Shown here piece by piece: positions 6,090-29,884 of a DNA stretch of 29,884 nucleotides. The stretch lies in IMG/VR virus record IMGVR_UViG_3300030390_001110, positions 1 through 29,884 of that record; one strand, written 5' to 3'. The stretch comes from a virus. Under the pieces are notes generated by a model. The model saw nothing but the letters and a program-made list of their open reading frames with translations. It was not told the DNA's origin and did not search any database. The translations under genes were made by a program, and so were the position numbers. Each line of letters begins with the position of its first letter. Within the stretch, counting starts at the first letter, position 1.

Positions 6090-6389
6090 TTATACTGATT
6101 CTTCCATAACTACATCAAGTGGATAGCTATGTTTTCTTGCATCTGTGACTGTTTCTATGCATTTTTGTTCAGCTACTTCATAGCTATATGCACCGGCAAC
6201 TGATCTGCCGTTCTCATGGACTTCTAATGTAATATTATGGGCTTCTTCATTTGTTTTACCAAAAAATGTCGTCAATACTTGTATAACGTATTCTACAGGT
6301 GTTACGTTATCATTTAAAAATATCACAAAATATTTATTTGGTGATTTAAGTTTTGTTCGTTCTGCAACTTGTTCTTGTTCCTGTGACAT
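6090..6389 (-). CDS. clpS: ClpS adaptor of Clp protease
   Basis: ClpS delivers N-degron substrates to the ClpAP protease. The 99-residue protein has the family core: FLNDNVTPVEYVIQVLTTFF, then EVHENGRSVAGAYSYEVAEQK and HSYPLDVVMEES. Residues that hold the substrate's alpha-amino group in E. coli ClpS (Asn34, Asp35, His66) are present as Asn26, Asp27 and His58. The gate residue Met40 is Val32, and Asp36 is Asn28. The N-terminal tail is short and charged, as usual. No ClpA gene is visible here, so it presumably works with host ClpA, or unusually with the phage ClpX. It follows hsp20 and has its own late promoter and leader hairpin. Confidence 0.93.
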   Translation of the reverse strand: MSQEQEQVAERTKLKSPNKYFVIFLNDNVTPVEYVIQVLTTFFGKTNEEAHNITLEVHENGRSVAGAYSYEVAEQKCIETVTDARKHSYPLDVVMEESV

Positions 6390-11401: not shown

Positions 11402-11413
11402 CACAAAGTTGTG
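11402..11413 (-). repeat. Palindromic 12-mer shared with 3230-3241
   Basis: CACAACTTTGTG on the minus strand in the leader of the thermonuclease gene, just downstream of a late-like octamer. It is identical to the element at 3230-3241. Confidence 0.4.
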
Positions 11414-11424
11414 CCGTTATTATA

Positions 11425-11432
11425 TATTTACC
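11425..11432 (-). promoter_or_regulatory. Possible late promoter for thermonuclease
   Basis: GGTAAATA deviates from TATAAATA at the first two positions. The predicted start near 11419 would give a leader of about 47 nt containing the palindromic 12-mer. Confidence 0.4.
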
Positions 11433-11448
11433 TATATTTTGGGGTGAT

Positions 11449-12144
11449 TTAAGTGGTATTTTTACTTTTTTGAGAATCTAGCCATGTTTTAGCAATATGA
11501 CCAGTTGGTGGAGAATCAATAAATGCTCTAACACGTTTGTATACGTTGTCAAAGTTTTCTCTGCGTTCTGGGTCTTCTAACCCACCACTGTTGTCTACAA
11601 CATGAAAGTCCTTTGCGCCAAATACTTGCTGGAATTTCATGAGATTTTCTTGGACTTTACGCCACATATCGTCTACCATTTCTGGTGGAACCATACGCTT
11701 TCTTTGTGTGTTACGTTCTTGTGCAATGTCTAGATTTGTGTTTACAAATAGCATCATTGTTTCGTAACCTAATTCTTTTAACTTTAGTGATTGCTCTTTT
11801 ACTTTTTGAACATCTTTTCCAGTGCCATCAATAATTAAACCAATACGTCCATCTATGTATATATTTTGTCTTTTATCAGTAAGTTGTTTTGCACGATCTC
11901 TAACTTCTTGTCCTTTAACACTTGCAATTTCCTCTGGGTCGCCTATATCAATGCCTTGTTTATCAGCTATATATTCATAAATATCATCACTGTTAACTGG
12001 CTTAAGACCTAGTCCTGAAAGGATTTTACTTGCTACATAACTTTTACCAGAGCCAGGGCCGCCAGCAAGAAATACTGCTTTAAATATGGCTGGATCATTT
12101 GGACCTTCATCTATTAGTCTTTCTAATATGTCATGTATTTTCAT
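11449..12144 (-). CDS. P-loop kinase, zeta-toxin-like
   Basis: A 231-residue P-loop protein. After a short helical head (MKIHDILERLIDEG) comes AVFLAGGPGSGKSYVASKIL (Walker A at residues 28-35). VNSDDIYEYI then resembles the substrate-binding aspartates of zeta-toxin or polynucleotide-kinase folds, and LIIDGTGKDVQKVKE and AQERNTQRKR (lid arginines) follow. Such enzymes phosphorylate small molecules, nucleotide sugars or nucleic-acid ends. No antitoxin partner is seen beside it, so a toxin-antitoxin role is unlikely; related kinases are found in marine T4-like phages. The ATG is 5 nt from a perfect TATAAATA, so the mRNA is probably leaderless. Confidence 0.78.
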   Translation of the reverse strand: MKIHDILERLIDEGPNDPAIFKAVFLAGGPGSGKSYVASKILSGLGLKPVNSDDIYEYIADKQGIDIGDPEEIASVKGQEVRDRAKQLTDKRQNIYIDGRIGLIIDGTGKDVQKVKEQSLKLKELGYETMMLFVNTNLDIAQERNTQRKRMVPPEMVDDMWRKVQENLMKFQQVFGAKDFHVVDNSGGLEDPERRENFDNVYKRVRAFIDSPPTGHIAKTWLDSQKSKNTT

Positions 12145-12179: not shown

Positions 12180-12770
12180 TTATACTTTTCTAACGACTAC
12201 TTTATCGGCTAATCCAAAGTCTACTGCCTCTTGTGCTGACATAAAGTTATCACGTTCCATGGCTGCAGATAGTTCTTCATATGTCTTGCCTACGCTATTA
12301 TGTGTAACATAAATTTCTGTTAGGTTCTTTTTTATTTTAAGAATTTCTTTTACTTGAATTTCCATGTCTGTTGCTTGTCCACCTGCACCACCACTTGGTT
12401 GGTGAATCATTGTGCGTGAATTTGGTAATACAAGACGTTTACCTGGTTCACCTGCTTGTGCAAGGAAACTACCCATGCTACATGCTTGGCCCATTACAAT
12501 TGTGCTTATAGGAGATTTAATAAATTGCATTGTATCATAAATTCCAAGTCCGGCTGTTACTCCACCACCTGGGCTGTTTATATAAAAGTTAATATCTTCA
12601 CTACTATTTTGTGATTCTAAAAACAACATTTGTGCAACAACTAAATTTGCTGTCATGTCGTTTACTTCTCCAGTTAACATTACAATACGATCTTTTAATA
12701 GTCTACTGTAAATATCATAACTGCGTTCTCCTCGTCCGGTCTGCTCGACCACCATTGGTACCAATGCCAT
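12180..12770 (-). CDS. clpP: ClpP protease subunit
   Basis: A complete 196-residue ClpP without a long propeptide. The catalytic serine is Ser98 in [10 protein letters not shown], the histidine is His123 in [10 protein letters not shown], and the aspartate is Asp174 in [19 protein letters not shown]. The handle region and the oxyanion glycines in [17 protein letters not shown] are intact. It should form the 14-mer peptidase that pairs with ClpX, whose IGF docking loop is preserved at 8.2 kb. The start [20 protein letters not shown] matches the mature N-terminus of bacterial ClpP, and GGAG lies eight bases upstream. It ends the sigma70 unit starting at 13995. Confidence 0.97.
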
Positions 12771-14023: not shown

Positions 14024-14052
14024 ATAATACACTATTTAATGATTAAAGTCAA
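14024..14052 (-). promoter_or_regulatory. Sigma70 promoter
   Basis: TTGACT (14047-14052) and TATTAT (14024-14029) on the minus strand, spacer 17 bp. The -35 box overlaps the stop codon of the radical-SAM gene. It drives 13995 down to clpP. Confidence 0.75.
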
Positions 14053-15053
14053 TCAAAATAGCGTTCGTTTTTTGGAATGTTATTCTTACCGCATTGTTCA
14101 ATACATATATCACATGCATTACCATTAAAACTATCGTTTAATTTTTGCCACCATGTATCACTCATTATAGTTTCTAAATCGTTATGATATAAACTATTCC
14201 AATATTCAGCTCTATCTTCTTTAATAAAATTTAGTGTTTGATTACGCATAGAATCATATGTCATTGCACCATTAAACATACAACATGGAATAACATAACC
14301 ATGTGCATTTACATATATCTTTTTATATGTAAAACATCTATCTACAATCTTATAAGATGTTCTATCAGGTAAATTAGGAAATCTATTATCACCGTTGGTA
14401 GCATGAACCTTATAATTAATTTTGTTGTTGGCTGCTTTCATAAATTCATTTATACCCATATCATTAACATCCCAATCTTGTTGGAATTTAGAACAGCCAT
14501 ATTCTTCTGATAACGCTTTTGCTTCTTCTACTTGATGTTTATTCCATTCAAATGTAACAAACTTCCATATTGCTCGTCCACCACCATCTATAAATGCTCG
14601 CATATTTCTTATTACTTTATGATAATCTACACCAATACGATATATGCCGTTAGTATCTTCTAGTCCATCTAATGAGAATTTAATCCAACTGTGTTTATTA
14701 AACTTTTTACCTAAGTCATAGAACATTTTTTCAGTTCGTAATCCACCATTTGTATGTAAATTAATTGCAGCGTTTGGTCTATGTTTGTAAATAATATCTA
14801 CTATTTCCATAAACTTTGGATGTGCAATTGGTTCACCTACAAGTCCTACTAGATCAACAAAACAATCATCTGATAAACGATTATTGCTGAATACTTTCTC
14901 AATTACATCTAATTCTAAATTAACGCCTAGTTTTACATATGGGTTATGAAATAGCTCGCCGTCTTGAATTGTATATCTATGGCAAGGGGGACAATAACTA
15001 TTGCATACTGTATTCAGATCAAACTCAACAGTATCTATTTCTTTGTAAAGCAT
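14049..15053 (-). CDS. Radical SAM protein with SPASM-like C-terminus (copy 1)
   Basis: A 334-residue radical S-adenosylmethionine enzyme. The 4Fe-4S motif CNSYCPPC gives Cys17, Cys21 and Cys24 (CxxxCxxC). Typical barrel features follow: DLVGLVGEPIAHPKF (GGEP-like strand), NLHTNGGLR and WIKFSLDGLED. The C-terminal region has IPCCMFNG and CDICIEQCG, cysteines expected to hold an auxiliary cluster, as in SPASM or twitch domains. The peptide or small-molecule substrate is unknown. It is about as long as, and clearly paralogous to, the protein at 17782-18753. Its ATG is 5 nt from a late octamer, and no ribosome site is visible. Confidence 0.88.
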   Translation of the reverse strand: MLYKEIDTVEFDLNTVCNSYCPPCHRYTIQDGELFHNPYVKLGVNLELDVIEKVFSNNRLSDDCFVDLVGLVGEPIAHPKFMEIVDIIYKHRPNAAINLHTNGGLRTEKMFYDLGKKFNKHSWIKFSLDGLEDTNGIYRIGVDYHKVIRNMRAFIDGGGRAIWKFVTFEWNKHQVEEAKALSEEYGCSKFQQDWDVNDMGINEFMKAANNKINYKVHATNGDNRFPNLPDRTSYKIVDRCFTYKKIYVNAHGYVIPCCMFNGAMTYDSMRNQTLNFIKEDRAEYWNSLYHNDLETIMSDTWWQKLNDSFNGNACDICIEQCGKNNIPKNERYFD

Positions 15054-17781: not shown

Positions 17782-18753
17782 TTATTTTACTGTATCGCAT
17801 GCATGGATACAAACTGTGCATGGCGTAGTATCTAAGTGGCCATATAGCTTGTGCCACCACCTATTATTCATTACATTTTCTAGTGTATTATGCTCTAAAC
17901 TGTTCCAATTTTCATTGGTTTCATTAATATATGGTATCATTTCGTCTTTATATGCTGTATCTGTTAAAGAACCATTAAACATACAACATGGCAATACTTT
18001 ACCTTCGTAATTTACATAAATTGCTTCATCGTCAAAACATCTATTTTTTATATGATTAAATTGGGTAGATTGCATAGCATTATTGTGCCCTATGGGTGCT
18101 ATTGTTTTTGTATGAAAGTTTTCAGCGGCTTTAACCCATTTATCCATCCATAGTGTATTTTCGTCTCTGTTTTTCTCTGTTTTAAATTTTTTTACACCAA
18201 AAGACTTTGCAAGTTGCTCAATACTTTTTAATTGGTGTTTATTCCATGGAAATATTATAGTTCTCCATATTGCATTTCCACCTGCATCACAAAACGCTTT
18301 TGTGTTCTCAACTATTTTATTCCAATTTACTCCTATACGATATCTATTATTTGTATCCTCTAATCCGTCTACTGAAAAGCTAATCCATGACTTTTCATTT
18401 AGTTTATGTGCAAGTTTCTGAAAGAATTCAGTTGAACGTAATCCTCCGTTTGTATGAATGTGTATATATGCATTAGGTTTGTGTTTATATATAATATCAA
18501 CTATATCTAAGAATTCTTGATGTGCAATTGGTTCACCTACTAGTCCTATCATGTCTATTGCAACATTATCAACCAATCTTTGATTTTCCATTACACGTTC
18601 TACAATATCTAAACTTACACTTGTATTAAAAGGTAAAAACGGATTGAGATACATTTCATCATCTACAATAGTATATCTATGACAACCAGGACAATAGGAG
18701 TTACATATAACGTTTAGGTCAAACTGGATAGCACTTATTTGTGGATATATCAT
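17782..18753 (-). CDS. Radical SAM protein with SPASM-like C-terminus (copy 2)
   Basis: A 323-residue paralogue of the 14049-15053 protein. It shares the FDLN.ICNSYCPGCHRYTI opening (Cys17, Cys21, Cys24), IGLVGEPIAHQEF, HIHTNGGLRS, WISFSVDGLEDTN..YRIGV and, at the C-terminus, LPCCMFNGSLTD and CTVCIHACD, which could ligate an auxiliary cluster. The two copies differ most around residues 190-240, the probable substrate side. No precursor-peptide gene with an obvious leader-core layout is adjacent. The ATG sits 5 nt from AATAAATA, so it should be a leaderless late gene like its paralogue. Confidence 0.88.
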   Translation of the reverse strand: MIYPQISAIQFDLNVICNSYCPGCHRYTIVDDEMYLNPFLPFNTSVSLDIVERVMENQRLVDNVAIDMIGLVGEPIAHQEFLDIVDIIYKHKPNAYIHIHTNGGLRSTEFFQKLAHKLNEKSWISFSVDGLEDTNNRYRIGVNWNKIVENTKAFCDAGGNAIWRTIIFPWNKHQLKSIEQLAKSFGVKKFKTEKNRDENTLWMDKWVKAAENFHTKTIAPIGHNNAMQSTQFNHIKNRCFDDEAIYVNYEGKVLPCCMFNGSLTDTAYKDEMIPYINETNENWNSLEHNTLENVMNNRWWHKLYGHLDTTPCTVCIHACDTVK

Positions 18754-20929: not shown

Positions 20930-20937
20930 TATTTATG
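20930..20937 (-). promoter_or_regulatory. Late promoter before structured leader
   Basis: CATAAATA overlapping the stop codon of the oxygenase gene. The predicted +1 is 20924. Confidence 0.62.
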
Positions 20938-21682
20938 CCTCAATATAAAATTGTATATTGATTCCTGTTTTTAAAGAGTTAAAATTTGGACGTTTACGTG
21001 TTACACAACTTGCATGTAACTGGCATGCATCAAATACTAATGCATTACCTGGTTGAAATGGAAACACTGCTTCTAAATCAAAGTCACATATATTATCCTT
21101 GGCTATGTGTGGAAATATATAATCTGTTTCTGTTAATACTGGTGTATCTATTATTTCAAAGTTTGGATATTCACGTGAAATCTCATACATACTCTTATCT
21201 TGTGAGCTTTGCCCAACACGGTCAAACGTTATGCTTGTGCCAATATAACGTTGTTTAAAAAATGCTGTATAGGCTTCTGCACCTGATGTAATACCTAGTG
21301 GAATTACACAACTTTTATAAGGTATTAAGTTTTCTGCCCAATCAAACTGTGTTTCTGCTTCTGTCATTAAGTCTACATGTGCATCATGTAGTTGTGTAGT
21401 AATATAATAGTTACCTGTGTGATACTGACTAAAGTCATGTTTTAGTATTGATTCAAATTTATCTTGTAACCATGAAAAGTCTTCAAACAGTCGTGTAACA
21501 TTTAATATAGGTTGTATATTGCTACTAGTATCTGTCCAACGCAAATCATCTGCATTTTGAAATTGATACAAAGTTAACTGATGTAACTCGTCAGCTGTAA
21601 ACACATTTTCTTCACACCGTGCAGGTTCAAAGTTTTTTATAATAGTATCTCTATGTGTTTTAATTAGCTCTTGGTAACTCAT
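20933..21682 (-). CDS. 2OG-Fe(II) oxygenase-type protein
   Basis: A 249-residue protein with hallmarks of the double-stranded beta-helix oxygenases. It has TQLHDAHVDLMTE (His-x-Asp), SCVIPLGITSGAEAYTAFF, then PFQPGNALVFDACQLHASCV (distal His) and LKTGINIQFYIEA at the end. The position expected for the 2OG-binding Arg or Lys falls in the R/K-rich TRKRPNFNSLK segment. Substrate unknown; phages use such enzymes for protein, nucleic-acid or small-molecule hydroxylation. It overlaps the ferredoxin reductase stop (ATGA), which suggests that the reductase supports it or neighbouring iron enzymes. Confidence 0.7.
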   Translation of the reverse strand: MSYQELIKTHRDTIIKNFEPARCEENVFTADELHQLTLYQFQNADDLRWTDTSSNIQPILNVTRLFEDFSWLQDKFESILKHDFSQYHTGNYYITTQLHDAHVDLMTEAETQFDWAENLIPYKSCVIPLGITSGAEAYTAFFKQRYIGTSITFDRVGQSSQDKSMYEISREYPNFEIIDTPVLTETDYIFPHIAKDNICDFDLEAVFPFQPGNALVFDACQLHASCVTRKRPNFNSLKTGINIQFYIEA

Positions 21683-22464
21683 TGTTCTACAAATGCTCTC
21701 TCTACTACATAAGTTCCAGGTGTTTTATTATTACCTTCTTCAAACCCTTTGCCTTCTAACCATTTTACTAGCTCATTATTCATTGGAATACTTCCACATA
21801 TCATAACTCTATCTTGTTCTGGGTCTAGTTCTGGTAAGTCTAGTTTTTCTTGCACTTTACCTTCATACATTGCATCAGTTACACGACCTTTATTTTCATA
21901 AAGTTGTCTTGTTACTGTTGGATAAAATTTAAACTTGCCTTCAGTTACGTGTTGGTATATTTCATCTTCGTTTAGGTTTCTAAACATTGCATCAAATGGA
22001 AGTTCTGCAACTGTTCTTGCACCCCATACTAATATTACATTTTCATAATATTCATATGTGTCTACTCCACGTGCTATAGATAAAAACGGTGCAACACCTG
22101 TTCCTGTTGCTAGTAAATATAGATTACGTCCAGGTTTTACATTTGTATTAACTAATGTGCCTACTGCTTTGTCATTAACTAATATCTTATCACCAGGAAC
22201 TACGTGTTGTAGTTTACTAGTTAATGGTCCTTCTTGGACTTTGATACTATAAAATTCTATTGTTTCTTGATGGTTGGGACTTGCTACGCTGTATGCTCGC
22301 ATTATTGGTTTATTTCTTTGTAGTTTTTCAGACCAATTATTTAATCCAATCATTACAAATTCGCCATCTCTGAATCTTAATCCAGGATCACGTGCTACTG
22401 TGAAGTGGAAGAGGTCGTCAGTATAGTGTTGAACCTTTAAAACTTCAAGTTCTAAAATTGCCAT
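21679..22464 (-). CDS. fpr: Ferredoxin--NADP+ reductase
   Basis: A 261-residue bacterial-type flavodoxin/ferredoxin reductase. The FAD site is MRAYSVASPNHQETIEFYSI and the isoalloxazine/NADPH region is LLATGTGVAPFLSI. EQDRVMICGSIPMNNELVKW follows, and the tail YVVERAFVEQ is typical of proteobacterial Fpr. It moves electrons from NADPH to ferredoxin or flavodoxin, which radical-SAM enzymes in this window would need. The start at 22464 (MAILELEV) has CGGAG six bases upstream; frames reaching 22608 would cross the promoters. It has both sigma70 and late promoters in the divergent control region. Confidence 0.95.
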   Translation of the reverse strand: MAILELEVLKVQHYTDDLFHFTVARDPGLRFRDGEFVMIGLNNWSEKLQRNKPIMRAYSVASPNHQETIEFYSIKVQEGPLTSKLQHVVPGDKILVNDKAVGTLVNTNVKPGRNLYLLATGTGVAPFLSIARGVDTYEYYENVILVWGARTVAELPFDAMFRNLNEDEIYQHVTEGKFKFYPTVTRQLYENKGRVTDAMYEGKVQEKLDLPELDPEQDRVMICGSIPMNNELVKWLEGKGFEEGNNKTPGTYVVERAFVEQ

Positions 22465-22476
22465 TGTTTCTCCGTG

Positions 22477-22545
22477 TATAAATATGATTACTACTTTATT
22501 TATTATAAGTAGATCTTGACAAATTGTCAACCTTATTATATAATA
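22477..22545. promoter_or_regulatory. Divergent promoter hub with shared -35 palindrome
   Basis: Two consensus sigma70 promoters face away from each other. Plus strand: TTGACA 22516-22521, 17 bp, TATAAT 22539-22544. Minus strand: TTGACA 22525-22530, 17 bp, TATAAT 22502-22507. Their -35 boxes form one palindrome, TTGACAAATTGTCAA (22516-22530). Late octamers are also present in each direction: TATAAATA plus at 22477-22484 and AATAAATA minus at 22497-22504. The plus sigma70 start falls at or next to the ATG at 22551, again predicting a leaderless mRNA. Confidence 0.88.
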
Positions 22546-22550
22546 TAAAC

Positions 22551-23087
22551 ATGATATATACAACCAAGTTAACCAGTCCGACTCCACAATTAATAAATTT
22601 TTTAACAAAATGTGATAGTTTAGGATATAAAAATAATAACTCGCTTAAAGCTATGAAGTTTGAGTGGTGTTTGGAAGAGGGTGGCATGTGGTTTGCAACA
22701 CATGACAGTGAAGATGAAATTATTAGTCTTAGTGGAATACATCCATTTAAAGATGGTTGGCGTGTATTATTCCGTGGTGCTCAACTTGAAAGTAGGCCAT
22801 GTGGATTAAACAGATATCATATGCAAAGTTATTGCTTTCATAGTCAGTTACCGTATCAAATTGAATGGGCTAAAGGTCATTCAAAATCTGAAAATCCATT
22901 TTTATATATAACAACAAATACAGATACTGATCAAAGTGGCAGAATGCAAAAAGTTAATAAAACTTTTTTAACACTAGAAAGATATGATATTGTATGTTGT
23001 TTAGGCAAAGAAGAGATATTTAATGTCAACCAGAATGTATGGCTATTAGACATAAAGAACTATGAAGGGGTAAGAAATGGATCTTAA
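22551..23087 (+). CDS. GNAT-like acetyltransferase-fold protein
   Basis: A 178-residue protein whose strand-helix order suggests a GNAT fold. It has MKFEWCLEEGGMWFATHDSE, EIISLSGIHPFKDGWRVLFR, CGLNRYHMQSYCFHSQLPYQ, FLYITTNTDTDQSGRMQKVN and KTFLTLERYDIVCCLGKEEI. The ITTNTD-to-LERYD part recalls the C-terminal half of GNAT enzymes, but the acetyl-CoA loop (R/Q-x-x-G-x-G/A) is not clear. It is the first gene of the plus-strand operon, begins about 7 nt after a perfect -10 box, and overlaps the AMP-binding gene by 11 nt. It may acylate or hydroxamate a pathway intermediate. Confidence 0.5.
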   Translation: MIYTTKLTSPTPQLINFLTKCDSLGYKNNNSLKAMKFEWCLEEGGMWFATHDSEDEIISLSGIHPFKDGWRVLFRGAQLESRPCGLNRYHMQSYCFHSQLPYQIEWAKGHSKSENPFLYITTNTDTDQSGRMQKVNKTFLTLERYDIVCCLGKEEIFNVNQNVWLLDIKNYEGVRNGS

Positions 23088-23778
23088 ACTAACTGATTGG
23101 GTATTCAAAGGCGGTGTAATACTTAGTAGTGGAACTACTGGTAAGCCTAAAAAAATAGATCAAAGTATTAATAAAATAACAGCGGCAAATAAAGTTGCTG
23201 TTAAATGCCAAAATATAACCAGTGATAGTAGAATATACACTGTTTGTAAAACAGAACATGCAGGTGGATTATTAGCCCAAACATTGCCTGGATATACAGT
23301 AGGTGCTCATATTGACATAGAACCTTTTAATGCTTATACATTCAATAGTAAAATTAATGACTATACGCATACACATTTAACACCTGCACATTGTCGTGCA
23401 TTAATGGGAACTAAGAATTTTTGGAAACTAGATTTAAGTAATATTTGGGTTACTGTAGGAAGTGATCCAGTTGGTTGGGATATTATTGAAACCTTTGTAA
23501 AACAAGGTGCTACATTTATGGCTAATTGGGGTATGAGCGAAGTAGGCCCTACTGCTATTAACACTGTATTTCGTAATATGGACGATGTTGCATATTATCA
23601 AGAACATGCAATACCAGATGCAACTATTCTAGGAGATAATTTTTATTGCGAATGGGATATTGTAGATGGCAAGTTTTTTGTAAGTGGTGACATATGTGTT
23701 TATAGTGGTTGGCTTAATACACATGATGATGTTGTAGTAAATTCTCAAGGAACCTTGTATTACAAAGGAAGAAAGTGA
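23077..23778 (+). CDS. Minimal AMP-binding (ANL) adenylation core
   Basis: A 233-residue ANL-superfamily fragment-like enzyme. The phosphate loop A3 is intact (LSSGTTGKPKKI, residues 16-27). A5 is NWGMSEVGP (150-158), A7 is SGDIC (203-207), and the protein ends at GRK, exactly at the A8 hinge. It therefore lacks the usual N-terminal 120-150 residues and the whole mobile C-terminal domain with the A10 lysine. The start at 23077 has AAGGGG six bases upstream. The open frame shows no sign of decay. It may bind ATP and an acid but need a partner to adenylate it. The full-length ANL protein at 26169-27596 is the obvious candidate. Confidence 0.82.
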   Translation: MDLKLTDWVFKGGVILSSGTTGKPKKIDQSINKITAANKVAVKCQNITSDSRIYTVCKTEHAGGLLAQTLPGYTVGAHIDIEPFNAYTFNSKINDYTHTHLTPAHCRALMGTKNFWKLDLSNIWVTVGSDPVGWDIIETFVKQGATFMANWGMSEVGPTAINTVFRNMDDVAYYQEHAIPDATILGDNFYCEWDIVDGKFFVSGDICVYSGWLNTHDDVVVNSQGTLYYKGRK

Positions 23779-23936
23779 TAAACACTTTAGTTATTTTTTG
23801 CCTGTGTATTATGTTAACAGGATGTATTGGTCCTACATTATTTCAAATAGGTGGTTATAAAGTTACAACAGGATCTATTATTACAATGCCAATTAAGAAA
23901 AAAGTTATTGAAGAGATAAAAAAAGAAAATGATTAA
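23775..23936 (+). CDS. Tiny lipoprotein, 53 residues
   Basis: A short gene starting with GTG at 23775, overlapping the TGA stop of the AMP-binding gene (GTGA). The N-terminus INTLVIFCLCIMLTGC is a signal peptide ending in a lipobox, LTGC, with the lipid-bearing Cys17. The mature part is about 37 residues, ending in a basic-acidic helix (PIKKKVIEEIKKEND). Its stop overlaps the next gene's ATG by 8 nt. It should be anchored in the inner or outer membrane. Small phage lipoproteins often block superinfection by masking receptors, but this is only an analogy here. Confidence 0.7.
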   Translation: MINTLVIFCLCIMLTGCIGPTLFQIGGYKVTTGSIITMPIKKKVIEEIKKEND

Positions 23937-24207
23937 AGTATTTTTTATAGCAAAAATGAAATCACCTATGCCAAGTGAGTATGTAACAGTGAGTAAACGA
24001 ATGCGTGAACTTGCTGAAAGTCATTCAGGCTTTGTATCTATTACTAACGAAGAAATTGGTGATGTTGAAATCACTGTTAGCACATGGCGTAGTAAAGAAG
24101 ATGTAATGGACTGGGCTCATAATCCAGAACATATGGAAGCAAAAAGACGATCCAAAGAATGGTATGAATGGATACGTGGAATACACGTAGAGACTATTGA
24201 TGAATAA
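23929..24207 (+). CDS. Antibiotic-biosynthesis-monooxygenase (ABM) domain protein
   Basis: A 92-residue dimeric alpha-beta-barrel-type protein. VFFIAKMK is followed by RMRELAESHSGFVSITNEEI, then VEITVSTWRSKEDVMDWAHN, PEHMEAKRRSKEWYEWIRGI and VETI. This is the pattern of ABM-family cofactor-independent monooxygenases and related small dimers acting on quinones, haem or polyketide-like aromatics. It overlaps the lipoprotein and the next gene (8 nt each). Its place among ANL, acyltransferase-like and redox genes fits a small-molecule pathway. Confidence 0.84.
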   Translation: MIKVFFIAKMKSPMPSEYVTVSKRMRELAESHSGFVSITNEEIGDVEITVSTWRSKEDVMDWAHNPEHMEAKRRSKEWYEWIRGIHVETIDE

Positions 24208-24919
24208 TATTGTATTTGTTAGTTTTGAACAAGGTGGCGGTGGACATAGACTTGCAAGAACCATTGCAACTCTTCCAAATATATATTGGTATAGCCATAT
24301 AGATAATGGAATTAATCCATGGAATATTAATACAAAACATACTACAATAAGACAACGTAAGGTTGCACCCGCACATTTTGATAGAATTGTGCCAGAAGGT
24401 AAACTTCCACCAACATGGGATTATGTAAAAGACTTTTTCCCATTTCCAGAGTATTATTATAGTATCTTTGTTGAAAAGTTTAAGCAGTTAGCACCAGATA
24501 CTGATAAATCGTTTGTGTATTGCACACATAGTAAGCCTAAAGAGCTATTACATTGGTTTCCTAACTGTAAAGTAATTAATTTGATCCATGATATAGATCC
24601 ACTTGCAGAACGTTATATGAAAACTACTGCAAAATTTCCAGGGTGGTTAAGAATGGCAGACATTGTGCCAGAAAATAATCCGCATCTAGTATTTTTAAAA
24701 TGTATGAGTGAGATAAAGAAAGACTTTACTGTAGCAGATATATGGGCTCAAAAAACACATGGAACATTAATGAAAGATGAATATTGGACTGAATATCTAA
24801 TTAGTGTTAAGAACATGCTTTATCATAACATGCAAGATAGAATAAACACTGATAATAAATTAGTGCTAAATGTTAAAGATAAAAATTGGCGAGAAATTAA
24901 GAACTTTTTGGCTTCTTAA
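24200..24919 (+). CDS. Unknown protein, possibly nucleotide- or sulfate-transfer fold
   Basis: A 239-residue protein beginning NNIVFVSFEQGGGGHRLART, a strand followed by a glycine-rich turn and helix that could bind phosphate. Later come DKSFVYCTHSKPKELLHWFP, KVINLIHDIDPLAERYMKTT and EYWTEYLISVKNMLYHNMQD. The order recalls sulfotransferases (strand-loop-helix, then a 'KVI.l.RdP' strand), but the motifs are too weak to assign. The ATG at 24200 lies inside the end of the ABM gene. It is the last gene of the plus-strand operon and overlaps the convergent methyltransferase gene by 23 bp. Confidence 0.5.
   Translation: MNNIVFVSFEQGGGGHRLARTIATLPNIYWYSHIDNGINPWNINTKHTTIRQRKVAPAHFDRIVPEGKLPPTWDYVKDFFPFPEYYYSIFVEKFKQLAPDTDKSFVYCTHSKPKELLHWFPNCKVINLIHDIDPLAERYMKTTAKFPGWLRMADIVPENNPHLVFLKCMSEIKKDFTVADIWAQKTHGTLMKDEYWTEYLISVKNMLYHNMQDRINTDNKLVLNVKDKNWREIKNFLAS
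24897..24919. terminator. Hairpin formed by two convergent stop codons
   Basis: TTAAGAA (24897-24903) and TTCTTAA (24913-24919) form a 7-bp inverted repeat that starts and ends exactly at the two stop codons of the overlapping convergent genes. It mirrors the arrangement at 1169-1190. Confidence 0.38.
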
Positions 24920-25490
24920 AGGTAATCATATTATGATATTGCTTGTTACCTTCTGGTGTAGTTAAACTATGCACTGGTTGTATTGTAATTACTTCAAGAT
25001 GTTTTTGAGAACTCCAACCACCTTCAAAATACCAATCCACATTATGTTTGCCCATACTACAATACAATAGTCCATCATCAGTTAAACTATCAGCTATATT
25101 CTTTGAAGCACTAGCATCAACATGTCCTATTGTTAATATACCTATTGCTGTTATACATTTATATTTTTTAGGTAGTGGTGCTTTAGTTATATCATGTATT
25201 TGTATTGACTTATAATTCTTTGCTATAAATCTATCAAGCATAGGTTGATTTATATCGTATCCATCTATTTTGTAATCATGTGCTTGTAATCCTATTCCAA
25301 CTTGTCCATTACCACATCCAATATCTGCAACTTCTGTTCCTTCTGGAAAGTTATCAGCAATCCATTGTGCTGCTAATGTATGACACTTCCAGCCTAGTCC
25401 ATCTATAACTTGTTCATGATAATTGTTCCAGTTATCATATAACTCACTGTTAGTTTTACCATATACTTCGTCTAACCATTTCTTAGTCAT
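24897..25490 (-). CDS. Class I SAM-dependent methyltransferase
   Basis: A 197-residue Rossmann methyltransferase. Motif I is EVADIGCGNGQVGIGL (residues 53-68), and YKIDGYDINQPMLDRF holds the acidic residue for the SAM ribose. GYDIN is followed by IQIHDITKAPLP and KCITAIGILTIGHVD, resembling small-molecule methyltransferases. The N-terminal cap (LDEVYGKTNSELYDNWNNYH) suits a lidded active site. It overlaps the nitroreductase gene by 8 nt and is last in the minus-strand pathway operon. The small-molecule preference is inferred from its similarity in shape and from context. Confidence 0.87.
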   Translation of the reverse strand: MTKKWLDEVYGKTNSELYDNWNNYHEQVIDGLGWKCHTLAAQWIADNFPEGTEVADIGCGNGQVGIGLQAHDYKIDGYDINQPMLDRFIAKNYKSIQIHDITKAPLPKKYKCITAIGILTIGHVDASASKNIADSLTDDGLLYCSMGKHNVDWYFEGGWSSQKHLEVITIQPVHSLTTPEGNKQYHNMITFKKPKSS

Positions 25491-26172
25491 AGTATTTTAC
25501 TTTCTTTGATATCTGTTGCCTAGTTGTTCTATATTTATTTATAAGGCTATCTTTATCTTCATATCCCATGCTCATTCCACATAATACTATTTTATCTTTG
25601 TATTCTGGTAATTCTTGTCTTACAATATTTCCATATTCACTAAGTGAACCTTGTGGACAAGTTGCTAATCCGTGTTCTGTTGATAGTAACATAATACTTT
25701 GTAAAAACATTCCATAGTCAACATAAGATCCATAGCCTAGTTCTCTATCAATAAAAAATAATAACATAACTGGTGCATCAAAGGCTCTATAGTTTTTAGC
25801 ATATAAGTCGTCTTTTTCTTTTTTCATTTTTCTGGTAATACCTAATTGAGAATATAATGCTAGTCCACATTCTTTTCTGTTGTCTTTATACTCACCAAAC
25901 CAGTTTGTTTCTTTTTCAGACTTTTTGTTTTGTGGATAATATTCATAATCCATAATAGGCTTTACACCAGATCGAAATGCTTGTTCTAGTTTACCACATA
26001 AGTTAGCTTTTGCTTTACCTGTTAAGACTGCTACTTGCCAAGGTTGATGATTATCTCCACTAGGTGATAGCATTGCTTGTTTTAAAATAGCATTAACTAA
26101 TGATACTTCTACCTTTTTATTAGTGTAAGCACGTGTAGATTTACGTGTTGTTAATGAATTGGTAACATTCAT
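25483..26172 (-). CDS. Nitroreductase-family flavoprotein
   Basis: A 229-residue FMN-dependent nitroreductase-fold protein. It has LTTRKSTRAYTNKKV (FMN phosphate arginines), LSPSGDNHQPWQVAVLTGKA, then VDYGMFLQSIMLLSTEHGLA and CPQGSLSEYGNIVRQEL with LCGMSMGYED near the end. The family includes reductases of nitro groups and quinones and dehydrogenases of peptide-derived rings. Its ATG overlaps the stop of the ANL gene (ATGA). Within the dioxygenase-ANL-methyltransferase operon it probably performs an oxidation or reduction on the pathway product. Confidence 0.93.
   Translation of the reverse strand: MNVTNSLTTRKSTRAYTNKKVEVSLVNAILKQAMLSPSGDNHQPWQVAVLTGKAKANLCGKLEQAFRSGVKPIMDYEYYPQNKKSEKETNWFGEYKDNRKECGLALYSQLGITRKMKKEKDDLYAKNYRAFDAPVMLLFFIDRELGYGSYVDYGMFLQSIMLLSTEHGLATCPQGSLSEYGNIVRQELPEYKDKIVLCGMSMGYEDKDSLINKYRTTRQQISKKVKYYD
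25536..25543 (-). promoter_or_regulatory. Candidate internal late promoter for methyltransferase
   Basis: Perfect TATAAATA near the 3' end of the nitroreductase gene. The start near 25530 would give a 40-nt leader to the methyltransferase at 25490. Confidence 0.5.
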
Positions 26173-27596
26173 ACCAGTGAATGGTCCTTTACATGCATAT
26201 GACTTAGTATTTGATCAGCTGGTCCGTTTAAAACAATTCCTGCTAATTTACTTTTTTGTAACTTTTGTGGAGTTCTAGTATCGTCTGTTTGTCCAAAGAA
26301 TAACTTATCAGTAACATGATATATTTCATGTGGTCTTTTTGATGGTTGCATTGCTTTAAAACTAGTTGCTACATCATATGCATTAGCACTGCCCGTATAT
26401 ATTAAGTAATGTAATTCATCTTTACTGCAACTTGCTACATTTTCTACACCTGAGGTTTCTAATGCTTTTGCTTCAATCATTCCTGTATAAATCTTAACGC
26501 CACCTTTCATAAAGATAACATCATCAAATGCTCTACCTTTGTAGAACCATACTCCGTCTTTATCATCAAACTTATCACCGTCTGTTTGCCAATCACGTGT
26601 TCCATACTTATACCACAGCACACCTTCTTTGTCTAGTTTAAGGTCGCCATTGTATATTCTATGTTTGAATCCATAAAAGTTTTCTATTGGATCACCTGGT
26701 CTATATTCTGCACGTGAATGACAGTCTGCTTCTGTTGACGCCATCATATTATGCATACATACAAAGTTAAACTTCTTTTCAATACTACGCACAACAGACT
26801 CTGGTGTATGTCCACCCGAACATTCCCAATACTTAATACCACTCCAATTAAAATCATCTGGACAAGCATCTACAATATTCTTAACTGCAATAGGATATGA
26901 AATGCAACAATTAGGATTTGCTTTGCGTATTTGTTCAGGAACATCATCTCCATAGTTTAGGAAGTGTAATCCACCACCTACATAATACATTCTCAATAAG
27001 TTATATGGATTGTATGTTGCAGTAAATCCATGTGTGCAAAGTATTTTAGGTCTTTCGTCTTGTTCAAACTCTGGTGCAATAGCAAACAAATGCTGAGTTG
27101 ATGCATGTGCTGTGCAACCCAATAGTGTTTCTCCATCTACAATTGCTAGTTCATGATCTTCATAATCCCAAAAGAAAGGATACATTTCAAAAAACTCTTT
27201 AACTGTAGTTCCACTTGTCATACCTCTGTAAATCTCTAACGGATGCAGTATTGTAGGGGTCAAATCGTCGGTTAGCATGGTGATCTCGTTGCTTCGTATA
27301 ATACATACTGCTTTAGATCCTGTAATTAACCCGTCTAATTCCATCTTAGATTGTCTGCCATCTGCCTGTGTTGCACTTCCGCCATTCTTAATACTAGCAA
27401 GTATCCATAAGTAATCATCAATTGTAACTTGATTTTCTGCTACGATAAAAACAACATGTGGTCCTATGCCGCATGCTTTTAGACGCTCAATTTTAGCATC
27501 AAGGTTAGCGTGTAGCTCTCCCCATGTAATTTGCTCTGTTGATGAACTCAAAAATATTTGATCATCACTTAATGGTGGTTGTTTTTGTTTTAACAT
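26169..27596 (-). CDS. Full-length ANL adenylating enzyme with degenerate P-loop
   Basis: A 475-residue acyl-adenylate-forming-type protein. The N-terminal part has ITWGELHANLDAKIERLKAC. A3 is altered: MTSGTTVKEFF (126-136) replaces TSGTTGxPKG. A5-like MMASTEADCHSRAEY (284-298) is followed by A7-like QTDGDKF (337-343), hinge A8 KGRAFDDVIFMKGGVKIY (353-370) and A10-like TRTPQKLQKSKL with a candidate catalytic Lys445. Such enzymes activate a carboxylate as its AMP ester. Losing the glycine, proline and lysine of A3 should hurt ATP binding. It is the central gene of the minus operon, overlapping its neighbours by 4 nt and by 1 nt. A carrier-protein gene was not seen. Confidence 0.86.
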   Translation of the reverse strand: MLKQKQPPLSDDQIFLSSSTEQITWGELHANLDAKIERLKACGIGPHVVFIVAENQVTIDDYLWILASIKNGGSATQADGRQSKMELDGLITGSKAVCIIRSNEITMLTDDLTPTILHPLEIYRGMTSGTTVKEFFEMYPFFWDYEDHELAIVDGETLLGCTAHASTQHLFAIAPEFEQDERPKILCTHGFTATYNPYNLLRMYYVGGGLHFLNYGDDVPEQIRKANPNCCISYPIAVKNIVDACPDDFNWSGIKYWECSGGHTPESVVRSIEKKFNFVCMHNMMASTEADCHSRAEYRPGDPIENFYGFKHRIYNGDLKLDKEGVLWYKYGTRDWQTDGDKFDDKDGVWFYKGRAFDDVIFMKGGVKIYTGMIEAKALETSGVENVASCSKDELHYLIYTGSANAYDVATSFKAMQPSKRPHEIYHVTDKLFFGQTDDTRTPQKLQKSKLAGIVLNGPADQILSHMHVKDHSLV

Positions 27597-28474
27597 TATT
27601 TTACTACTTTTAGTTTTTCTATATCAGGATCATATGATTTATTAGGGCCAAGTATATTAGTATAATCAAATGCTGTTCGCCATATCATTCTATCAATACT
27701 TTTAACCCAACTACGTCTATGTAACGTGAGCAACTGATCACATATTAAAAAGTCGCCTTCTCTGAGAACAAAATCACTTATGTTTCTGCCTCTATACAAA
27801 TCTTTTAAAAACTTCTCTTTTAATTCTTCTATGTCAATTGATTCATTTTTATACCATGCTTTATCAAGAAATGCAGGTTGCCATAACATAATTTCTTTAT
27901 CAGTATATGGATGAATGTTAATTACTTTTTGTCTTTCTTCTGTATGTTTAAAAACTTTATAATTTTTTAGACTAGGATCTCTGCTATGTTCTTCAGGCGT
28001 TCCATATATTCCATGTGAACCTTGGTTTAGTTGTGTTTCAACATTACGCCACCATTCTTTTTCTTCTTCAGACAAATAATTAAATGCAATTTGTGTGTTC
28101 ATTAAACTTAATACTGTATCTGGACATGATCCTACACAATATAGTCCTGTTAGTAGTTCTTTAAATTCACCAAAATGACATACTCCAAAATCGTGATGAT
28201 ATAATAAATCTGATGGACCAAACATGCCATGTGGATCAGTGCCAGTTGGCTGTGATGTAATTAAAGAAAGATCTGGTGTATCTTCTGGATTAAACTGCAT
28301 ATGTCCCATTGATGGGTTTGAATCATTTGTATCACCAATGCGTCTACTTACTTCAACTAATTCTTGTCTAGTAAATTCTTGATCATGAAGTAGTATATAT
28401 CCGTTAGAAGCACATTGATACATTGCTTCTTTTAGTTCGGTATCTGTGTAGTCTTGTAATTTTTTAATCTTCAT
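27596..28474 (-). CDS. TauD-type 2OG dioxygenase (HxD intact)
   Basis: A 292-residue TauD/TfdA (clavaminate-synthase-like) dioxygenase. Iron ligands are His93 and Asp95 in LLYHHDFGVCHFG and His252 in ICDQLLTLHRRSW; Arg266 in RMIWRTAFDY should bind 2-oxoglutarate. It would hydroxylate, desaturate or cyclise a substrate, possibly an amino acid as in VioC and CAS relatives. It is a paralogue of the next gene, sharing MQFNPED..PD.S, CPDTVLS and LSEEEKEWWRNVE. Its stop shares a base with the ANL start. A ribosome site is weak (GAAAGAT). Confidence 0.9.
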   Translation of the reverse strand: MKIKKLQDYTDTELKEAMYQCASNGYILLHDQEFTRQELVEVSRRIGDTNDSNPSMGHMQFNPEDTPDLSLITSQPTGTDPHGMFGPSDLLYHHDFGVCHFGEFKELLTGLYCVGSCPDTVLSLMNTQIAFNYLSEEEKEWWRNVETQLNQGSHGIYGTPEEHSRDPSLKNYKVFKHTEERQKVINIHPYTDKEIMLWQPAFLDKAWYKNESIDIEELKEKFLKDLYRGRNISDFVLREGDFLICDQLLTLHRRSWVKSIDRMIWRTAFDYTNILGPNKSYDPDIEKLKVVK

Positions 28475-28486
28475 GTAAATATCTTT

Positions 28487-29332
28487 CTACTTATCAATAG
28501 TATTTTTGTAGTCTATTGCTACTCTCCATAGTTCTCTATTTTTGTCTAGTATTGGAGAACGTCTATGTAATGTATAAAACTGATCCATAATTAATATATC
28601 TCCGGGTCTAAACACAATGTCTTTAATGTGTTTTGTCCTATTAATAACTGCATCAAACTTTTTCTGCAACGGCTTAATGTCTATTCGTTCTCCATTGTGC
28701 CATGCTTTACTAATCAAAGGTGGTTGCCAATATAAAAATTCTTGTCCGCCAATAGGATGAGTATTAACCACCGGCATTCTGCTATCACCTTCATGTTTTG
28801 GTGCTTGGACATATTTTTCCATTCGAGCTGTTTTTGCCGCGTCTGCCTTGTCTGGTGGGTTCCAATATTGTCCCATTATGCTTCCGCCGTTATTGTTCAA
28901 TTGCACTTCAACTCCACGCCACCATTGTTTTTCTTCTTCGGATAGTTCTAAAAATGCATCTCTGTTGTTACTTACTGACAATACTGTATCAGGACAGTAT
29001 TCTACACAATACAAACAAATTAACCATTCTTTGTGTTCCCATTTTCCATCTACTACATGATGCACTGTTCCATTTGAATGCCATTCTAAATCACAATGAC
29101 CAAGTAACATATCTGGTTTTGGAGATACAATAGAAATATCAGGATGTTCTTCTGGGTTAAACTGCATATAACCTAGCATATCATCATCTGTGCTACCTAT
29201 TCTACCACAATATTCAACTAACTCACTCATAGTAAATTGTTGATCATAATGCAACGTAAATCCTTCTGTTAATATACGTGTTGCTTCGTTAAGCATTTCT
29301 TCATCTGTAAAATCTTTTATCTGTTTTTCCAT
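28487..29332 (-). CDS. TauD-type dioxygenase paralogue with HxN in place of HxD
   Basis: A 281-residue paralogue of the 27596-28474 protein. It has the same fold landmarks (MQFNPEEHPDISIV, CPDTVLSVS, distal His256 in MDQFYTLHRRSP, Arg270 in ELWRVAIDY). However, the metal motif reads LEWHSNGTVHH: His85 is kept and the usual Asp is Asn87, a one-base change (AAT for GAT). It may bind iron poorly, or perform a chemistry other than hydroxylation, as in 2OG halogenases where the carboxylate is lost. The start at 29332 has GGAG eight bases upstream; a TTG two codons earlier is possible. Confidence 0.87.
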   Translation of the reverse strand: MEKQIKDFTDEEMLNEATRILTEGFTLHYDQQFTMSELVEYCGRIGSTDDDMLGYMQFNPEEHPDISIVSPKPDMLLGHCDLEWHSNGTVHHVVDGKWEHKEWLICLYCVEYCPDTVLSVSNNRDAFLELSEEEKQWWRGVEVQLNNNGGSIMGQYWNPPDKADAAKTARMEKYVQAPKHEGDSRMPVVNTHPIGGQEFLYWQPPLISKAWHNGERIDIKPLQKKFDAVINRTKHIKDIVFRPGDILIMDQFYTLHRRSPILDKNRELWRVAIDYKNTIDK

Positions 29333-29334
29333 GC

Positions 29335-29874
29335 TCAATTCTCCTTTTTTCTATCTATCATATCCCACATATCTTGTTCCCAATTTGGTTTATTCCTATT
29401 CCATTTTGTGGTATCATACTTATTTATATTAGGACTGATGTGTTCAAATTCTTTTATATCAAACTTAAAAAACATTTCATTAGTCTTTAGCCAGTTATTA
29501 ATTAGCCTTGTTAAAATAATATGAGATTCTTCTGTCAAATGAGCTACTCTAAAATCGTTGTTTTCCTGGCCAAAGAAACGATTGTGCCATCTCATTATTT
29601 TTTCTTCTAATATAACAATAGTATCTAAGTATGATTGATTTTCAAATACTTCGTTCTTAAGTCCAAACATAAATTTAACATCAGGTCTTATTTGCTTGAT
29701 TCGTTCTATTACTAGACAATAATTTAATTTATTTCTCTGTTGGTAACTAGCGTTAGTAACTAATGAATCAAGTGCAGAAATAGATTTCCACATATCTCGT
29801 AATTCAAATTGACCGTTCATATTTGTTCTTTTATAATTACTGTCTATATAATCTCCTGGGCCAGTATATGTCAT
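29335..29874 (-). CDS. Unknown helical protein at window edge
   Basis: A 179-residue, largely helical protein (DMWKSISALDSLVTNASYQQ, LNYCLVIERIKQIRPDVKFM, YLDTIVILEEKIMRWHNRFF, HIILTRLINNWLKTNEMFFK, WEQDMWDMIDRKKEN). The IRPDVKFMFGLKN strand and regular helices suggest an alpha/beta enzyme or binding protein, but no family is recognised. It ends 2 nt before the ATG of the dioxygenase gene and thus leads the pathway operon. The reading frame is complete; its promoter lies outside the window. Confidence 0.55.
   Translation of the reverse strand: MTYTGPGDYIDSNYKRTNMNGQFELRDMWKSISALDSLVTNASYQQRNKLNYCLVIERIKQIRPDVKFMFGLKNEVFENQSYLDTIVILEEKIMRWHNRFFGQENNDFRVAHLTEESHIILTRLINNWLKTNEMFFKFDIKEFEHISPNINKYDTTKWNRNKPNWEQDMWDMIDRKKEN
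29421..29428 (-). promoter_or_regulatory. Candidate internal late promoter
   Basis: Perfect TATAAATA inside the end of the 29335-29874 gene. The predicted start near 29415 would give the dioxygenase operon a leader of about 83 nt. Confidence 0.48.
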
Positions 29875-29884
29875 TATATTTTTA

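What the first reader, a model, noticed from the sequence alone, without database searches (positions are those of the whole stretch)
22551..29874. Candidate phage-borne small-molecule pathway
Two back-to-back convergent operons hold a GNAT-like protein, two ANL enzymes, an ABM monooxygenase, a nitroreductase, a methyltransferase, two TauD-type dioxygenases and two unknowns, with a ferredoxin reductase across the promoter hub. This is the parts list of a biosynthetic cluster, with no structural or replication genes among them. The product could be a signalling molecule, toxin, siderophore-like compound or a hypermodified base precursor.
Basis: inference. Interest (0 to 1): 0.68.

Follow-up and report, generated by a model that had tools for sequence, protein, structure and literature searches.

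The report
Phage osmolyte-import and tailoring gene operon
A marine virus of bacteria carries a conserved operon that pairs two parts of an importer resembling the ocean's DMSP (sulfur osmolyte) importers with four enzyme families that could modify what comes in, an unusual metabolic kit that recurs in at least eleven uncultured viral lineages; what it makes or breaks down is still unknown.

Summary
The genes are there as described, and more than chance holds them together, but they are two viral modules, not one cluster. Module A is one operon running left from beyond the window's right end: importer binding protein DmpX-like, permease DmpW-like, two TauD dioxygenases, a full-length ANL enzyme (ANL2), a nitroreductase, a methyltransferase. 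In a relative (L007) these seven genes fill the space between two consensus promoters. ANL2 recurs in 11 viral lineages, never in the cellular genomes searched; the binding protein's nearest solved relative is the DMSP-binding RnDmpX, with the aromatic cage kept. Module B is a GNAT, a miniature ANL (no N-terminal part, no C-terminal domain) and a sulfotransferase-like protein, found in most of 57 viral lineages, usually without module A. The genes are under purifying selection. Carrier proteins and classic cluster cores were not found, and nothing supports a toxin, siderophore, signal or DNA base. Best reading: import of a DMSP/betaine-like zwitterion and its oxidative/acyl-activating modification inside the infected cell; direction (making or breaking) unproven. 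No earlier description was found in the papers searched.

The parts
22502..22544 (.). Divergent overlapping pair of perfect sigma-70 promoters (TTGACA-17-TATAAT on both strands, sharing TTGACAAATTGTCAA)
   Evidence: the same overlapping pair stands beside the GNAT gene in relative L104 (9615/9629)
22551..23087 (+). GNAT-fold protein (module B)
   Evidence: profile match to GNAT 3t9y E 1e-4; beside ANL1 within 6 kb in 49 of 57 viral lineages
23077..23778 (+). ANL1: miniature ANL enzyme core, lacks about 150 N-terminal residues and the C-terminal domain (module B)
   Evidence: PF00501 positions 167-337; AlphaFold pLDDT 95, Foldseek to MenE/FACL13 N-domain TM 0.76-0.78; 53-row alignment
23929..24207 (+). 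DUF3291/ABM-like small protein; accessory, not found in any fetched viral relative
   Evidence: PF11695 E 1.4e-8
24197..24919 (+). Sulfotransferase-like protein (module B)
   Evidence: AlphaFold pLDDT 94.6; best Foldseek hits sulfotransferases, E 5e-4, prob 0.99-1.0 but TM about 0.4; 43 of 57 lineages
24897..25490 (-). SAM-dependent methyltransferase (module A)
   Evidence: PF13489 E 8e-8; beside ANL2 in 10 of 11 lineages
25483..26172 (-). Nitroreductase, nearest solved 3gr3, 7dp0, NfnB (module A)
   Evidence: PF00881 E 1.4e-20; 8 of 11 lineages
26169..27596 (-). ANL2: full-length ANL enzyme with P-loop TSGTT, A5, TDGD, GRxFDDVIFMKGG hinge and C-terminal lysines (module A)
   Evidence: 23 viral loci 56-95% identical; none in genome contigs, Pelagibacterales or INPHARED
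27596..28474 (-). TauD1: Fe(II)/2-oxoglutarate dioxygenase with HxD...H...R (module A)
   Evidence: PF02668; motif table
28487..29338 (-). TauD2: TauD-family protein with HxN in place of HxD (module A)
   Evidence: PF02668; motif table; same HSN in cultured Pelagibacter phage Mosig
29335..29874 (-). C-terminal part of an SGNH-like protein that runs past the window through a scaffold gap; followed on the contig by DmpW- and DmpX-type genes at 30180-31049 and 31051-32031
   Evidence: accessory
21679..22464 (-). Ferredoxin-NADP reductase-type protein, transcribed away from the hub; neighbour with its own partner 2OG-oxygenase-like gene 20933-21682
   Evidence: PF00175 E 2.5e-10; travels with ANL1 in a few lineages only

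Best explanation
Module A is a virus-borne import-and-modify pathway. A phage-made periplasmic binding protein (DmpX-like) catches a DMSP- or betaine-like zwitterion and delivers it to a phage-made permease (DmpW-like) powered by the host's own ATPase. In the cytoplasm ANL2 activates a carboxylate as an acyl-adenylate, the TauD enzymes hydroxylate or demethylate, the nitroreductase does a flavin redox step and the methyltransferase methylates. I favour tailoring of the imported compound into a product useful during infection over its use as food. Module B (GNAT, mini-ANL, sulfotransferase-like) is a separate, more widespread viral acyl/sulfo-transfer cassette that sits next door in this phage. 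Shown: gene content, operon structure, recurrence, binding-pocket conservation, purifying selection. Inferred: substrate class, use of the host ATPase, reaction order, direction.
For: Operon: in L007 promoter TTGACA at 6245, then DmpX-DmpW-TauD-TauD-ANL2-NTR-MT with gaps of at most 24 bases, next promoter at 12691. Recurrence: ANL2 with MT in 10 of 11 lineages, NTR and DmpX-DmpW in 8 of 11, in differing orders. OpuAC binding protein in 8 of 12 ANL2 records but 2 of 50 other module-B records, and those two lack two of the four cage Trps. Pocket: best solved relative RnDmpX 7yle at 194 bits against 22-28 for other glycine-betaine binders; Trp35, Trp84, Trp152, Trp202, Tyr200 and Glu113 kept (residues from PMC10030565). 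Sixteen viral binding proteins form one clade, support 100/99, with a long stem. No ABC ATPase in 11 of 12 ANL2 records. dN/dS 0.05-0.18 for module A.
Against: The DMSP-carboxylate ligand Thr64 is Ile in most ANL2-linked viral proteins, so the ligand may not be DMSP. Four ANL2 records (L016/L017, L020, L021) lack the binding protein, and L020 has lost TauD. No enzyme substrate is known; ANL2 has no solved relative by sequence. The pathway order is inference. Most records are fragments.
Confidence: 0.55

Rival explanations
1. Module A is a nutrient-scavenging auxiliary operon: the imported osmolyte is broken down for carbon, nitrogen, sulfur or methyl groups to feed phage replication.
For: The importer half resembles host DMSP/betaine importers; hosts of this kind import such compounds (PMC10030565); one pelagiphage raises host DMSP demethylation genes (PMC12753301); ANL, TauD and flavoenzymes also occur in catabolism.
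Against: None of the known DMSP or betaine breakdown enzymes was recognised in the operon, ANL2 has no cellular relative in the genomes searched, and cellular DmpX loci carry none of ANL2, TauD, NTR or module B, so it is not a borrowed host pathway.
Confidence: 0.27
2. The enzymes modify a macromolecule (virion protein, cell-surface glycan, tRNA or DNA) and the importer genes are an independent neighbour.
For: A similar island with TauD, nitroreductase, methyltransferase, GNAT, carbamoyltransferase and radical SAM genes lies beside tail-fibre genes in Pelagibacter phage Mosig; a queuosine-precursor transporter lies next to the operon in this phage; modules reshuffle.
Against: No glycosyltransferase or DNA-modification enzyme was recognised in module A; the importer genes stay with ANL2 in 8 of 12 records while the order changes; the queuosine transporter was found in this phage only.
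Confidence: 0.13
3. A chance neighbourhood of unrelated phage accessory genes.
For: Phage accessory regions are mosaic; ABM, SGNH-like, YhhQ and ferredoxin reductase genes are not conserved neighbours; modules A and B separate in most viruses.
Against: Seven-gene operon bounded by two promoters in L007, recurrence in 11 lineages down to 56% identity, purifying selection.
Confidence: 0.05

Closest known systems
DmpXWV, the DMSP ABC importer of marine Roseobacter and SAR11 bacteria (PMC10030565)
   Same: Binding protein and permease; four-Trp cage, Tyr200 and Glu113 equivalents conserved
   Different: Thr64 to Ile in most, Ala153 to Ser; no adjacent ATPase; separate viral clade at 38-44% identity to the nearest cellular proteins; joined to TauD, ANL2, NTR and MT
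Metabolic island of the cultured Pelagibacter phage Mosig EXVC030M, genes 72-90 (MT647606)
   Same: Island of oxygenase, TauD (31% identical to TauD2, same HSN motif), methylase, GNAT and nitroreductase genes
   Different: Of the 20 island proteins tested only its TauD matches a module A or B profile; no ANL, DmpX or sulfotransferase-like match
ANL superfamily: MenE, FACL13, 4-coumarate ligase, feruloyl-CoA synthetase
   Same: ANL1 folds as the central ANL core with P-loop, A5 and A7 motifs; ANL2 has the full motif set
   Different: ANL1 lacks both outer parts including the catalytic lysine domain; ANL2 gives no solved relative at E 0.01
Viral auxiliary transport genes (pstS in cyanophages, tctA domain on SUP05 viral contigs; PMC6359870)
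   Same: A virus carries part of a host-type nutrient importer; TctA and TctC-like genes also stand near modules A and B in several relatives
   Different: Here binding protein and permease come in one operon with dedicated enzymes without close cellular relatives

Membership tests
DmpXWV DMSP importer | OpuAC-type periplasmic binding protein | tested here: met
   PF04069 E 1e-34
DmpXWV DMSP importer | DMSP pocket: Trp35, Thr64, Trp84, Glu113, Trp152, Ala153, Tyr200, Trp202 | tested here: inconclusive
   Six of eight kept; Thr64 is Ile and Ala153 is Ser in this phage; Thr kept in L018 and L041-L045
DmpXWV DMSP importer | ATP-binding subunit beside the other two | tested here: not met
   No ABC_tran match in this record or in 10 of 11 related records; the one match lies about 40 kb from the binding-protein gene
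DmpXWV DMSP importer | Submicromolar DMSP binding | not testable with these tools
   needs calorimetry
Biosynthetic gene cluster of antiSMASH type | Core synthase (NRPS, PKS, RiPP precursor or siderophore synthetase) or carrier protein | tested here: not met
   None among family matches of the module genes; antiSMASH itself was not run
Host-derived auxiliary metabolic gene set | Close cellular relatives of the enzymes | tested here: not met
   ANL2 none; ANL1 only ordinary full-length ANLs; NTR has moderate relatives in 39 of 297 Pelagibacterales genomes
TauD-type Fe(II)/2-oxoglutarate dioxygenase (TauD1) | HxD/E...H iron triad and 2OG arginine | tested here: met
   TauD1 HHD, H, R
TauD-type Fe(II)/2-oxoglutarate dioxygenase (TauD2) | HxD/E...H iron triad | tested here: not met
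   HSN in most; HGD in L021, which is 50% identical to TauD2, so the Asn may still serve
ANL enzyme (ANL1) | Complete fold with C-terminal domain and A10 lysine | tested here: not met
   Ends at the GRK hinge; starts at the P-loop region
PAPS sulfotransferase | Sulfotransferase fold with phosphosulfate-binding loop | tested here: inconclusive
   Top structural hits are sulfotransferases but TM about 0.4; no sequence match
DNA hypermodification pathway | Base-modifying enzymes acting on DNA or nucleotides | not tested
   No such enzyme was recognised; no direct test made

The most novel reading that the evidence does not exclude
Marine large-genome phages have evolved, outside the cellular lineages searched, their own small-molecule pathway that starts from an imported ocean osmolyte and makes a new modified compound during infection, built on ANL enzymes found only in viruses.
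Probability: 0.3. Interest if true: 0.82.

Novelty: new variant of a known kind. Interest (0 to 1): 0.6.

Why it matters
DMSP and betaines are among the most abundant osmolytes of the sea and their import by SAR11 and Roseobacter matters for the sulfur cycle. A virus that brings its own binding protein and permease plus dedicated enzymes would redirect that flux in infected cells. The operon is compact, conserved and made mostly of soluble enzymes, so substrate and product can be tested directly; the cultured Pelagibacter phage Mosig offers a related TauD and a similar island in a laboratory host.

Tried and rejected
Split ANL (GNAT gene as the missing N-terminal half of ANL1): rejected, since the GNAT profile matches a GNAT structure and gene order varies, with GNAT downstream of ANL1 or on the other strand in relatives. 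One cluster of all nine genes: rejected. Host operon borrowed whole: rejected. Close relative in cultured phages: none for ANL2, ANL1 or DmpX; the TauDs matched only Mosig, and NTR only distant ones. TauD2 as a halogenase because of its altered triad: not adopted; Asn is not the Gly/Ala of known halogenases (own knowledge) and a relative has Asp. Literature: no report of viral DmpX/ProX-type operons or of this gene set in the papers searched.
Full report
Setting. The window is bases 1-29884 of a 67,875-base virus record. The rest of that record carries NrdA/NrdB, UvsX-, UvsW- and DnaB-type genes (read from the sequence); its helicase and NrdA are nearest to those of Pseudomonas jumbo phages of the PA5oct/MIJ3 kind at 51-59% identity, one Stenotrophomonas phage NrdA being closer at 64%. 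So this is probably a fragment of a large tailed phage. Related records reach 184 kb with ANL2 and 383 kb with module B only. The host is unknown; the binding protein's cellular relatives are marine Alpha- and Gammaproteobacteria.

Observation. All nine genes are present and their families hold (details under observation check). The hub at 22502-22544 is two perfect sigma-70 promoters facing opposite ways and sharing TTGACAAATTGTCAA; the same pair stands beside the GNAT gene in L104. The GNAT start codon at 22551 falls about where transcription would begin, so its message may be leaderless (inference).

Module A. The left-running operon does not end at the window edge. Beyond a scaffold gap it continues with the rest of an SGNH-like gene, a ProW-type permease (259 bits to ProW, 254 to ChoW, both below NCBI's own cut-offs), an OpuAC binding protein and a queuosine-precursor transporter. 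A scan of viral contigs with ANL2 gave 23 loci at 56-95% identity, which I collapse to 11 lineages including this one. MT stands with ANL2 in 10, NTR in 8, DmpX-DmpW in 8, one or two intact TauD in 9, in changing order. In L007 the seven genes fill the interval between two consensus promoters with gaps of at most 24 bases. Between close relatives dN/dS is 0.05-0.18 for module A genes.

What the importer may carry. The profile of the viral binding proteins finds RnDmpX (7yle) at 194 bits and other betaine binders at 22-28 bits. The published pocket (PMC10030565) is kept at six of eight places, including the four-Trp cage and the Tyr200 whose loss abolishes DMSP binding there; Thr64, which holds the DMSP carboxylate, is Ile in most ANL2-linked viral proteins but Thr in L018 and in L041-L045. 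Cellular relatives, 38-44% identical, have Thr and mostly Gly. Sixteen viral proteins form one clade (100/99) on a long stem; two others (L068, L115), from records without ANL2, stand apart and lack two cage Trps. Hence a sulfonium or quaternary-ammonium zwitterion is the likely ligand; DMSP itself is not shown. No ATPase gene was found in 11 of 12 ANL2 records, so the host's must serve if the importer works (inference). Whether the characterised SAR11 DmpX is among my cellular set was not checked, and the solved RnDmpX sits on a long branch of the tree.

What the enzymes may do. ANL2 has the full motif set and invariant C-terminal lysines but no solved relative at E 0.01. TauD1 has the HxD...H triad; TauD2 has HxN, also in the cultured phage Mosig, while the L021 relative has HxD, so Asn may be tolerated. 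NTR resembles 3gr3, 7dp0 and NfnB and has moderate relatives in 39 of 297 Pelagibacterales genomes. No carrier protein was recognised, so ANL2 would hand its acyl group to CoA or directly to an amine (inference).

Module B. ANL1 is a 233-residue ANL core: it begins near the P-loop and ends at the GR hinge; the predicted structure (pLDDT 95) matches MenE and the FACL13 N-domain. It occurs in 57 lineages, with GNAT in 49 and the sulfotransferase-like gene in 43 within 6 kb (a few of the contigs are short, so these are lower bounds). In 398 Pseudomonadota genomes the only strong matches were ordinary full-length ANLs. The sulfotransferase assignment rests on fold hits with TM about 0.4 and stays tentative. 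Between this phage and L104 ANL1 has dN/dS 0.34 at 54% identity, the sulfotransferase-like gene 0.12.

One cluster or two? ANL1 is in 8 of 12 ANL2 records; in the 184-kb record it lies about 96 kb from ANL2 with its own GNAT and sulfotransferase-like neighbours. ANL2 is in none of 50 other ANL1 records bar one weak 29-bit match. OpuAC is in 8 of 12 against 2 of 50 (Fisher 6e-6, records not fully independent). So the modules are separate and merely adjacent here. ABM, SGNH-like and YhhQ genes are private to this phage or nearly so, and the ferredoxin reductase with its oxygenase-like neighbour is shared by a few lineages only.

Origin. ANL2 was not found in genomes of 84,980 bacterial and archaeal species (pattern-based, so distant members could be missed), in 297 Pelagibacterales genomes (no positive control rang) or in 50,697 phage records. 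Cellular DmpX loci lack the other module genes apart from generic methyltransferases. The set looks viral, not a recent host loan.

Verdict. The best-supported account is import plus modification of an osmolyte-like zwitterion; making versus breaking is open. Kind: a viral auxiliary metabolic operon, in a form I did not find described.

Noticed in passing
L003:3045-3653 (contig 32045-32653): Queuosine-precursor (7-deazaguanine) transporter of the YhhQ/VUT family directly upstream of the importer genes; not present in any fetched relative's neighbourhood.
   Followed up: partly
L228 (Pelagibacter phage Mosig, record 54701-69165): A cultured pelagiphage carries an island of about 20 metabolic genes beside its tail fibres (TauD, nitroreductase, desaturase, aminotransferase, carbamoyltransferase, MoaA-type radical SAM); its genome announcement does not discuss it.
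   Followed up: partly
window 28487-29338 and relatives: TauD-family proteins with conserved Asn in place of the iron-binding Asp (HxN), several in viruses, in this phage paired with a canonical HxD paralogue.
   Followed up: partly
L020 and L026, about 11408-11536: A 43-residue C-terminal TauD remnant where the sister L021 has an intact gene: apparent recent TauD loss.
   Followed up: no
L049-L128: Module B often has a DUF6356 small membrane protein, a second sulfotransferase-like gene, a methyltransferase, TctA/TctC-like genes and radical SAM genes near it.
   Followed up: partly
window 14049-15053 and 17782-18753: Two related proteins that look like radical SAM enzymes; homologues occur with module A in L008-L011, between ANL2 and NTR.
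   Followed up: no
L003:15851-16615: A second nitroreductase-like gene in the same phage (read from the sequence).
   Followed up: no
window 22544-22551: The -10 box ends 6 bases before the GNAT ATG, suggesting a leaderless message; the L104 pair has a similar spacing.
   Followed up: partly
window 29875-29884 onward: Scaffold gap (run of N) at or just past the window end, inside the SGNH-like gene, so that gene's exact sequence is unsure.
   Followed up: no
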